DNA of 64,000 bases from Mucilaginibacter flavus (lineage in GTDB: Bacteria > Bacteroidota > Bacteroidia > Sphingobacteriales > Sphingobacteriaceae), in NCBI RefSeq assembly GCF_030409315.1, contig NZ_JAUFPS010000041.1, positions 1 to 64,000 on the forward strand, in the 5' to 3' direction. The stretch's first letter is position 1. Each line of letters opens with the position of its first letter. The notes under the pieces were generated by a model that saw only the letters and a list, made by a program, of their open reading frames with translations, made no database searches and was not told the DNA's origin. This document shows, one piece after another, positions 43,081-44,886 of the stretch. The position numbers and the translations under genes were made by a program.

Positions 43081-43169
43081 GGTTTAAATGCTATCTCGTT
43101 GAGAGTTGCAAAATCCGAAACCTCTAAAAATCAGAATGATCGGATTAGAAAAGAAACGGGGTCAGTCTG

Positions 43170-43392
43170 AGTTATAAAATCCGGGGCCTGTGAAAGTGGA
43201 AATGACATATCTTTGTTTTGCTGTGCAGTGTGGCCGTTCAAGTTATAGTGCGAAATTGCCTGTTGCTGAGTATGGTTCCGAAGAACAGAGTCTGAAAGTG
43301 TGGTACGATCCTTTCTAAGAGTGATTTGTCCGATGGGTAGCCTGTCTTTTTTTACACTCCTTCGGGCACGGCTTATTAAACTAAGTCAAAGA
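43170..43392 (+). ncRNA. Candidate IS110 bridge RNA region
   Basis: IS110-group elements encode a bridge RNA between the left end and the transposase start, with loops that match the target and donor DNA. Here the leader holds the 14-mer ATGGGTAGCCTGTC (43333-43346), identical to the right end, where a donor-loop guide near the transposase start would be expected. A second GCCTGT context lies upstream (43186-43191). Exact ends and folding were not determined; this is an inference. Confidence 0.4.
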
Positions 43393-44691
43393 ATGGAAAA
43401 GATGCATTTTCATGCAGCCGGTATTGATATCGGCTCCCGTAAAGTATTTGTAGGTGTTGAAAATAGTCCGGTACGGTGCTTTGAGACGTTCACAAGCGAT
43501 CTGGTTTCTCTCGGTGATTATTTATTGGATAATAAAGTAACGACTGTTGCGATGGAGGCGACGGGTGTTTACTGGTATGTTCTTTATGATATCCTGGTGG
43601 ATGCAGGCCTTGATGTGTGGCTTGTAGACGGCCGGCAAACACGCCAGTTACCGGGTAGAAAAACAGATGTAAAAGATTGCCAGTGGATACAGCAGCTGCA
43701 TAGTTATGGTTTATTAAACCGTTGTTATGTATCGGAAGGATTGATCAAGGAACTGCGTAGCTATCAACGCCTTCGGGAAGATCATTTAAGGAGTGCTGCG
43801 ATGCATGTCCAGCATATGCAAAAAGCGTTGATAGAAATGAATATCCGGCTACCGGAAGTCTTAAGCCAGGTTCATGGAGCAAGTGGTATGGCCCTGATCA
43901 CTGCCATACTGGGTGGTGAAAGAGACTTACGTAAGTTGGTTTCATTGTGCCACAAAAGTATCAGAGAAAAGAAAGAGGAAGAACTGCTGAAGGCTTTGCA
44001 GGGTCATTACACCCCTCAAGGACTTTTTGCATTAGAACAGGCTTTGAAAGCTTATCAGTTTTACCAGGGGCAAATCTTAGATTGCGACCGGCAGATAGAC
44101 GCTACATTGCAAAAGATCAATAAAGATAAACAGCTGCCGCCGGGTACAGGAGGAGGAAAGAGAAAAACGATCCGGCATAATAAACCCACTATCAAAGGCC
44201 TTGGTGACCATCTGCTGAAGATATTTGGCGGCAGGGATGCAACCAAACTTCCGGGCTTCACCGATTACAATTGGTTGCAATTGTATGCTGAAGTAGGATC
44301 AGACCTAAGTAACTGGCCGAGTGAAAAACATTTTACGAGTTGGCTTGGGTTAGCCCCGGGACAAGACAGGTCGGGAAAGAAGAATAAAAATAAAAGCAAG
44401 GGAAAACCCACTGTAGGACAAATCTTCAAACAGATGGCCCACGGTCTGTTAAACAGTAAATATATCGGATGGGGCGCTTTTGCAAGAAGGCTAAGGGGGA
44501 GGAAAGGCCTTGCAATAGCAATTAAAGCAACTGCCAGGAAATTAGCAGCCCAGTATTGGCGTCTGATTGTGAAAGGAAGCGAATTTGTTGAAAATGGTTT
44601 GCAAGCCTACGAAAATATCCTTAAAGAACAGAAAGAAAGGCGATTAGTAAAACTCGCCTTTGAGTTGAATAGGGAGTTAGTCCCTGTCTAA
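43393..44691 (+). CDS. IS110 family transposase (RuvC-like DEDD recombinase)
   Basis: A 432-residue recombinase from the ATG at 43393; an in-frame GTG at 43300 adds 31 residues with no family similarity. The N-terminal RuvC-like domain has the DEDD set Asp12 (GIDIGS), Glu55 (AMEATGVYW), Asp92 and Asp95 (KTDVKD). A coiled-coil region follows (about 120-230), then the Transposase_20 domain from about 285 (KLPGFTDYNWLQLYAEVG, FTSWLGLAPGQDRSGKK, VGQIFKQMAHGLL), which supplies the catalytic serine. The reading frame is intact, so the element may be active. It sits between serA and the MBL gene, facing the latter. Confidence 0.95.
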   Translation: MEKMHFHAAGIDIGSRKVFVGVENSPVRCFETFTSDLVSLGDYLLDNKVTTVAMEATGVYWYVLYDILVDAGLDVWLVDGRQTRQLPGRKTDVKDCQWIQQLHSYGLLNRCYVSEGLIKELRSYQRLREDHLRSAAMHVQHMQKALIEMNIRLPEVLSQVHGASGMALITAILGGERDLRKLVSLCHKSIREKKEEELLKALQGHYTPQGLFALEQALKAYQFYQGQILDCDRQIDATLQKINKDKQLPPGTGGGKRKTIRHNKPTIKGLGDHLLKIFGGRDATKLPGFTDYNWLQLYAEVGSDLSNWPSEKHFTSWLGLAPGQDRSGKKNKNKSKGKPTVGQIFKQMAHGLLNSKYIGWGAFARRLRGRKGLAIAIKATARKLAAQYWRLIVKGSEFVENGLQAYENILKEQKERRLVKLAFELNRELVPV

Positions 44692-44712
44692 TTAAAGATG
44701 TCATGGGTAGCC

Positions 44713-44886
44713 TGTCGAAGCACGCGGGCGAAGGCCTCTGCGCGCGCCCTTCGACAAGCTCAGGATGACCGGCCGCCTTAGCTTTATGATCTGTCATGTT
44801 GAACTTGTTTCAACACCCCCCACTTGCTAAGTATACTTCATGCGAGCAAAATGTCCTGTGGGTTGCCGAAATAAATTCGGCATGAC
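44713..44886. repeat. Cluster of REP-like palindromes next to the IS110 right end
   Basis: A hairpin with outer arms GTCGAAG and CTTCGAC spans about 44713-44755. Three variants of one palindromic GTCAT-initiated motif follow: minus at 44748-44769 (CTGAGCTTGTCGAAG core), plus at 44793-44815 (TTGAACTTGTTTCAA core) and minus at 44864-44886 (CCGAATTTATTTCGG core). The second and third differ by paired changes that keep the stem. It has no coding content. Confidence 0.75.

What the first reader, a model, noticed from the sequence alone, without database searches (positions are those of the whole stretch)
43333..44716. IS110 leader contains a 14-mer identical to the element's right end: possible bridge-RNA donor guide
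ATGGGTAGCCTGTC occurs at 43333-43346, 47 nt before the transposase ATG, and again at 44703-44716 at the right end. In IS110-group bridge RNAs the donor-binding loop lies nearest the transposase gene and carries a guide with the sequence of the element end plus a CT core. Position, CT core and identity all fit that model. A second GCCTGT context at 43186-43191 could mark the target loop. The mechanism is established for IS621; its application here is inference.
Basis: partly seen in the sequence, partly recalled or inferred. Interest (0 to 1): 0.62.

Follow-up and report, generated by a model that had tools for sequence, protein, structure and literature searches.

The report
Guide RNA of an IS110 jumping gene
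The repeat is very likely the donor guide of an RNA-guided jumping gene, as suspected, though its joining point differs from the one proposed, and the same genome holds dozens of small, enzyme-less relatives, a few of which carry their own guide RNA that seems aimed at the ends of the others.

Summary
Observation confirmed; interpretation right in kind, wrong in detail. The window (Mucilaginibacter group) holds one complete IS110-family element (43172-44710) with a 221-nt leader. Multi-copy relatives fix the ends: left flank GTCATNCTGAG, right end GTCATGGGTAG. The exchange core is therefore AG, not CT. Only 8 nt of the 14-mer (ATGGGTAG) are element end; the last six are host repeat. A guide RNA at 43217-43375 is supported by compensatory changes. 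Its donor guide is GATGGGTAG (43332-43340) and its target guide TGCTGAG (43264-43270), not the proposed 43186-43191. Across 15 element groups (48 left flanks) the target guide follows the left target more closely than chance. Beyond the finding: 36 of 43 GTCATGGGTAG sites in this genome have the element's left end upstream and look like right ends of short transposase-less elements. Three of these keep the guide RNA. Their target guide reads AGGGTAG where readable, and the two with a readable left flank sit directly after a sister's right end, GTCATGGGTAG. About half of the short elements' targets (TGCGAG) fit neither guide found in this genome, so their driver may be lost. My searches found no report of IS110-derived MITEs. 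Nothing is bench-tested.

The parts
43161..43171 (+). left target half GTCAGTCTGAG of the host palindromic repeat; last two bases (43170-43171) = core AG
   Evidence: motif GTCATNCTGAG left of most relatives' copies
43172..44710 (+). IS110-family element; left end TTATAAAATCC (right donor) 43172-43182, right end GTCATGGGT + core AG 44700-44710
   Evidence: multi-copy boundaries in G053, G116, G125, G024, G033
43172..43209 (+). terminal 38 bp of the left end, shared with the short transposase-less elements
   Evidence: nhmmer pairing
43208..43215 (+). TATCTTTG, candidate -7 element TAnnTTTG of a Bacteroidota promoter for the guide RNA
   Evidence: at positions 36-39 of 10 of 13 left ends examined; absent there in L169, L215 and L129; the consensus is recalled (one search is a listing only)
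43217..43375 (+). guide (bridge) RNA
   Evidence: covariance model R1 (168.6 bits); 13 of 54 pairs with changes on both sides in 15 sequences, 0 of 500 shuffles as high
43264..43270 (+). left target guide TGCTGAG (core AG 43269-43270)
   Evidence: varies in step with the left target across 15 element groups
43332..43340 (+). left donor guide GATGGGTAG (core AG 43339-43340)
   Evidence: 8-nt suffix match to the element's right end, p 0.0015; differs along with the end in G009, G226, G251 and, less exactly, G163
43341..43346 (+). CCTGTC, mostly conserved in the leader, pairs with GATGGG in the predicted fold; its match to the right flank is coincidental
   Evidence: helix 7 has no covariation
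43349..43358 (+). candidate right donor guide TTTTTACACT (last two bases = complement of core AG)
   Evidence: inference from comparing leaders with left ends; not tested statistically
43393..44691 (+). IS110-family transposase, 432 aa (D12, E55, D92, D95; S327-G328)
   Evidence: PF01548, PF02371; NF033542; invariant residues; profile match to IS621 8wt6 E 8.7e-15
44711..44769 (+). right target: remainder of the host palindromic repeat (CCTGTCGAAG...CTTCGACAAGCTCAGGATGAC)
   Evidence: about 60-bp repeat found dozens of times in the genome

Best explanation
This is a complete IS110-group insertion sequence that, by analogy with IS621, excises as a circle and inserts into the host's intergenic palindromic repeats under the direction of a guide (bridge) RNA made from its leader. 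The 14-mer's first eight letters are the left donor guide: they have the sequence of the element's right end including the AG core, so the RNA can pair with the opposite strand. A second guide, TGCTGAG, selects the left half of the palindrome (GTCATNCTGAG). Shown by sequence: ends, AG core, conserved RNA with compensatory changes, catalytic residues, and target guides that follow targets among relatives. Inferred: that the RNA is made, that it pairs with DNA, and the recombination steps. Short transposase-less derivatives with the same ends were most likely moved in trans by this element or by a related one that is no longer in this assembly.
For: Boundaries from multi-copy relatives. Donor-guide match p 0.0015 for the window. 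Target guide against left target over 15 element groups and 48 flanks: mean 6.16 of 7 matches against 5.06 when guides are reassigned, p 5e-5; without the mini-element, G035 and G251, p 0.011; with L105 and L106 untrimmed p 5e-5 and 0.012. Clear paired changes: guide TTGTTGAG with target ATGTTGAG (G035); guide ATTGCGAG with target ATTGCGAG (G251). RNA covariation: 13 pairs changed on both sides, 97.1% of cells paired, 0 of 500 shuffles, slid versions 0-5 pairs. Transposase family and residues. Short derivatives: 36 of 43 right ends preceded by the left-end motif on the same strand, 1 of 43 on the opposite strand.
Against: The single-sequence fold is not unusually stable (z -1.41; 18 of 200 shuffles as good) and the donor guide is largely paired in it. 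For the window alone the target guide matches its left target only over CTGAG (p 0.256). The right target varies and I could not assign its guide. In the 52% relative G121 the matches of 5 and 6 nt are not significant. The 7-nt target match of G009 falls at leader position 207, not at its proposed guide, and its donor match occurs at two places. G163's donor guide fits its own end less well than the window's would. Of 43 left ends near the sites, 22 have TGCGAG as left target, which fits neither guide found in this genome. phmmer with the protein alone finds no solved structure. No RNA data.
Confidence: 0.9

Rival explanations
1. The leader's 14-mer is a stray copy of the host palindromic repeat (left arm plus CCTGTC), and has nothing to do with guiding.
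For: 11 of 43 GTCATGGGTAG sites in the genome read on with CCTGTC, so the 14-mer is also found at other repeats.
Against: The leader keeps GATGGGTAG in relatives whose flanks are other repeats; relatives with other ends carry other letters at the same place; no GAAG follows in the leader; the segment lies in a covarying RNA.
Confidence: 0.04
2. Core CT with all 14 nt as element end.
For: CT is the IS621 core (PMC11208160, passages); GCCTGT occurs in both copies.
Against: In relatives the sequence after GTCATGGGTAG is variable host repeat, so the element stops at AG; left flanks also end in AG.
Confidence: 0.02
3. The GTCATGGGTAG repeats are a variant of the host palindrome spread by other means (for example a REP-associated transposase), not right ends of IS110-derived elements.
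For: Two sites (C6:69065, C12:17072) are inner repeats with this arm and no left end of their own; 5 of 43 sites besides the window's own show no left-end hit, two of them at contig edges; G014 has 122 sites and no matching transposase or RNA.
Against: 36 of 43 sites have the element's left end upstream on the same strand against 1 of 43 on the opposite strand; left and right flanks mostly belong to the same repeat family (21 concordant, 3 discordant, 12 rows unclassed; p 5e-4).
Confidence: 0.08
4. The left flank GTCATGGGTAG of the guide-RNA mini-elements arose because other short elements inserted at their left junction, not because their own guide targets right ends.
For: Such junctions also occur left of elements without a guide RNA: one in this genome (C33:12743), one in the G014 stretches (L154, as GTTATGGGTAG) and one in the G022 stretches (L161).
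Against: 2 of 2 readable mini-elements show it against 1 of 41 other left ends near the 43 sites (p 0.003), and their target guide reads AGGGTAG, which fits that flank and not the GTCATTGCGAG or GTCATTTCGAG left of the neighbour.
Confidence: 0.35

Closest known systems
IS621 (IS110 group, E. coli)
   Same: DEDD residues plus serine, guide RNA in a long left end, insertion in extragenic palindromes, guides that include the core dinucleotide (PMC11208160 sections 6, 7, 12, 20 and passages; PMC11208158 passages)
   Different: core AG instead of CT; transposase 432 aa instead of 328 (solved chain), related only at profile level; RNA predicted as a multibranched fold, not two simple internal loops
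ISEc21 / ISEc11 and ISXne4 (seekRNA elements)
   Same: RNA-directed target choice; natural change of guide with target already reported for ISEc11/ISXne4 (PMC11187229, passages)
   Different: other targets; here one version of the guide appears aimed at the family's own right end
IS1111 and QMITE2 of Coxiella burnetii
   Same: an IS1111 element inserting into a REP carried by a MITE (PMC5896051, passages)
   Different: there, in the passages seen, the MITE is a target and is not described as derived from the element; here the short elements share the IS110 element's own ends

Membership tests
IS110 family | DEDD_Tnp_IS110 and Transposase_20 domains | tested here: met
   PF01548 6.2e-15, PF02371 1.5e-9; NF033542 6e-60
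IS110 family | DEDD catalytic residues and Tnp-domain serine-glycine | tested here: met
   D12, E55, D92, D95, S327, G328 invariant in 15 proteins, aligning with IS621; IS621 residues from PMC11208158 passages
IS110 group (not IS1111) | long non-coding left end with the guide RNA, short right end | tested here: met
   221 nt before the ATG, 19 nt after the stop; RNA model hit in the left end
IS1111 group | guide RNA downstream of the gene | tested here: not met
   right end is 19 nt, no room for a guide RNA
IS1111 group | subterminal inverted repeats of 7-17 bp | not tested
   not searched for
Bridge RNA | conserved structured RNA | tested here: met
   the alignment was fitted to the model
Bridge RNA | two internal loops, each with a left and a right guide | tested here: inconclusive
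   left guides located; right donor guide only a candidate; right target guide not assigned; fold is multibranched
Bridge RNA | guides covary with target and donor | tested here: met
   left target guide p 5e-5 over 15 groups; donor guide only by inspection over 4 end types, G163 less exact
Bridge RNA | expressed, bound by the transposase, needed for recombination | not testable with these tools
   needs RNA sequencing and recombination assays
MITE-like derivative (the short elements) | short, no transposase, same ends and target type as an autonomous element | tested here: met
   transposase of this type found once in the genome
MITE-like derivative (the short elements) | terminal inverted repeats | not tested
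   not searched for

The most novel reading that the evidence does not exclude
The genome carries a guide-only parasite: a 396-397-bp element with IS110 ends and its own bridge RNA but no transposase, whose target guide has been rewritten to AGGGTAG so that a transposase borrowed from a full element inserts it at the right ends of sister elements. The short elements in turn carry a fresh palindromic target inside them, so that they replenish rather than use up insertion sites.
Probability: 0.5. Interest if true: 0.8.

Novelty: new variant of a known kind. Interest (0 to 1): 0.6.

Why it matters
It gives a natural, multi-genome test of bridge-RNA programming (guides and targets changing together, AG core instead of CT). 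It also adds an abundant class of IS110-derived non-autonomous elements, including ones that keep only the guide RNA. If the guide-only elements are real, bridge RNAs act in trans in nature and can be turned on the family's own ends; this can be tested with one transposase and two short DNAs.

Tried and rejected
CT core and 43186-43191 as target loop: rejected from multi-copy ends. Reading the GTCATGGGTAG sites as excision scars: first idea, dropped when the left-end motif was found upstream of 36 of 43 (two inner repeats remain unexplained). Rfam at gathering scores gave one match in the window, a tRNA elsewhere. phmmer against solved structures found nothing at E 0.01; the profile did. Minimum free energy as proof of structure failed (z -1.41). 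A second IS110-type gene in the genome (C92) was considered as driver of the short elements; no GTCATGGGTAG site lies on that contig, its guide was not looked for, and it was left aside. Literature: searches for IS110 or IS1111 with MITE, miniature, non-autonomous or bridge RNA gave no IS110-derived MITE in the listings, nor in the passages I looked at in eight of the listed papers (with 66, 64, 65). Most subscription papers and all bioRxiv preprints are outside that library.

Rows dropped. Not used: G116's truncated copy, one of two identical G009 flanks, G125's incomplete copy, four of nine G033 guide-RNA loci (not fetched), one G163 copy without a left part, all G121 and G038 copies (other target, core probably GA), G176 (39%, ends not worked out), and more distant relatives. 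In L105 and L106 an extra AG at the left was trimmed; one search repeats the test untrimmed. In one search, 12 of 36 rows fell outside the named repeat classes, which I defined after seeing the sequences; the three discordant rows can be read as nested insertions but are counted as discordant. An earlier count of 1 in 36 other left ends was replaced by 1 in 41.

Full report
OBSERVATION. The two exact copies are where stated. The protein from ATG 43393 is an IS110-family transposase (PF01548, PF02371; NF033542 'IS110 family RNA-guided transposase'). Four acidic residues and S327-G328 are invariant in 15 relatives, and a profile of these matches the solved IS621 transposase (E 8.7e-15); the single protein does not reach it at E 0.01.

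ENDS AND CORE. This genome has one copy of this transposase. The genus search found relatives in 40 of 149 genomes, the own one included. Shared contig lengths identify G024 as Mucilaginibacter gossypii and G033 as M. lappiensis. Lining up fetched copies gives a constant right end ...GTCATGGGTAG followed by different right halves of host palindromes (GAACGAAG, CTTGTCGAAG, CGCAGCGAAG, GTACGAAG ...). The left flank is GTCATNCTGAG in most copies, followed by the element's start. Left target and right end share AG, so the core is AG. The window element is 43172-44710 and its inferred empty site is GTCAGTCTGAG/CCTGTCGAAGC. Exceptions: L105 and L106 have an extra AG at the left, L122 has GTCATGGGTAA at the right, L116 has an untypical right flank.

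WHAT THE 14-MER IS. ATGGGTAG is element end plus core; CCTGTC at 44711-44716 is host repeat. Most leaders of close relatives keep CCTGTC or CCTGTT behind the 8-mer whatever their flank (L169 has TCTGTC), and in the predicted fold it pairs with GATGGG. That hairpin has no covariation, so its role is open.

GUIDE RNA. A model from six leaders finds the RNA in 8 of 149 genomes, with filters that can lose weak matches. On 15 sequences 97.1% of pair cells are standard; 13 of 54 pairs have changes on both sides; no shuffle of 500 reaches this, and structures slid by 1-3 columns give 0-5 such pairs. The alignment was fitted to the model and the sequences are related, which favours it. Stability of the single RNA is unremarkable (z -1.41). 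A TAnnTTTG motif stands at positions 36-39 in 10 of 13 left ends examined, and is absent there in L169, L215 and L129; that this is the Bacteroidota -7 motif is recalled.

GUIDES FOLLOW TARGETS. The target-guide position reads TGCTGAG (window, G053, G116, G024, G226), GTCTGAG (G125), TTCTGAG (G128), CCCTGAG and TACTGAG (G033), TGTTGAG (G035), AGGGTAG (mini-elements), CCCTGAG (G009, G125b, G163) and TTGCGAG (G251). Over 15 groups and 48 left flanks the own guide matches 6.16 of 7 positions, reassigned guides 5.06 (p 5e-5); with one group per distinct guide p 1e-4; without the mini-element, G035 and G251 p 0.011. With L105 and L106 untrimmed: p 5e-5 and 0.012. Groups are related and host repeats differ between genomes, so these are not fully independent. 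The window's own pair matches at 5 of 7.

DONOR GUIDES. Guide and right end read ATGGGTAG/ATGGGTAG (window type), TATGGTAG/ATTGGTAG (G163), CATGGTAG/AATGGTAG (G226, G251), TATGGCAG/AATGGCAG (G009, G125b), compared by eye. G163's guide fits its own end (6 of 8) less well than the window's guide would (7 of 8). Suffix matches by shuffle: window donor p 0.0015, target 0.256; G009 donor 0.0155 (two places in the leader), target 0.005 but at a place other than the proposed guide; G121 0.14 and 0.12; mini-element 0.008 for both, from the same leader 8-mer.

SHORT RELATIVES. GTCATGGGTAG occurs 43 times in this genome, its reversed control once. I extracted all 43. 36 have the element's left-end motif (14 bits or more) within 600 bp upstream on the same strand, 1 on the opposite strand; downstream 5 and 3. 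The other seven: the window element itself (left end further away), one weak hit (C95, 6.5 bits), two at contig edges, three with none. Two left ends are each shared by two right ends (nested repeats), so about 34 distinct left ends. With the weak one, 37 stretches cluster into families A (15), B (7) and C (5), all 156-174 bp, whose printed representatives carry an inner host-type palindrome, and ten others of 62 to 534 bp. Left and right flanks mostly belong to the same host repeat: TTGCGAG with R3 12, with R1/R4 2; NCTGAG with R3 1, with R1/R4 9 (p 5e-4; 12 rows unclassed). In stretches of two other genomes 19 of 26 sites pair likewise (12 bits or more), 3 of 26 on the opposite strand; one of these, G014, has 122 sites and no match to this transposase or RNA. 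The window element itself sits in a repeat whose left surroundings resemble a family A element (query 112-230 is 77% identical to L014). Against a simple picture: of 43 distinct left ends near the sites, 22 have TGCGAG as left target, which neither guide of this genome fits; that guide was seen only in G251, from another genus.

GUIDE-ONLY ELEMENTS. L002 and L003 (396 and 397 bp, 99% identical) and a copy broken by an N (L004) keep the RNA (167, 167.5 and 93 bits) without a transposase; their right ends are among the 36. The target guide of L002 and L003 is AGGGTAG, and both left flanks are GTCATGGGTAG, the right end of a short element: 2 of 2 against 1 of 41 other left ends near the sites (p 0.003). 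In L004 the guide and left flank fall in the gap. Against: such junctions also occur beside elements without guide RNA (C33:12743; L154, L161), and the mini-elements' right-donor segment is altered (ACCTC for ACTCC), so their activity is uncertain.

COMPARISON. IS621 and its bridge RNA (PMC11208160: sections 6, 7, 12, 20 and passages; PMC11208158: passages) are the model. Natural retargeting has been reported for ISEc11/ISXne4 (PMC11187229, passages). Coxiella QMITE2 is a target of IS1111 (PMC5896051, passages). Searches showed no IS110-derived MITE.

VERDICT. Bridge-RNA donor guide: very likely, with corrected core and extent. Short IS110-derived elements: likely. Guide-only elements aimed at sister ends: about even.

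Noticed in passing
G000 (own genome): 36 of 43 GTCATGGGTAG sites, e.g. L040, L044, L046: Transposase-less elements with the ends of the window's IS110; families A, B and C (156-174 bp) carry an inner palindromic repeat, i.e. a fresh target, in the printed representatives.
   Followed up: yes
L002, L003, L004 (C4:332098-332494, C6:40447-40844, C25:11760-12091): Elements of 396-397 bp (third copy broken by an N) with guide RNA but no transposase; the two readable ones have target guide AGGGTAG and sit directly behind the right end of a short sister element.
   Followed up: yes
left ends near the 43 sites: 22 of 43 distinct left ends have TGCGAG as left target, which fits neither guide RNA found in this genome; the driver of these elements is unknown.
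   Followed up: partly
G014: 122 right-end motifs, no match to this transposase or guide RNA: the short elements seem to have outlived their driver or to be served by another.
   Followed up: partly
C12:17072 and C6:69065: Inner repeats of family A elements whose left arm reads GTCATGGGTAG without a left end of their own; origin unexplained.
   Followed up: no
G000:C92:16550-16987 (L213): A second IS110-type transposase gene (378-aa open frame), not found by the protein search with the window's transposase.
   Followed up: no
G035:C1:5446346-5447741 (L170): Decayed copy whose guide (TTGTTGAG) and left flank (ATGTTGAG) differ together from the other groups.
   Followed up: partly
window 43091-43160: Sequence left of the element resembles the left part of a family A short element, so the IS110 probably sits in that element's inner repeat.
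   Followed up: partly
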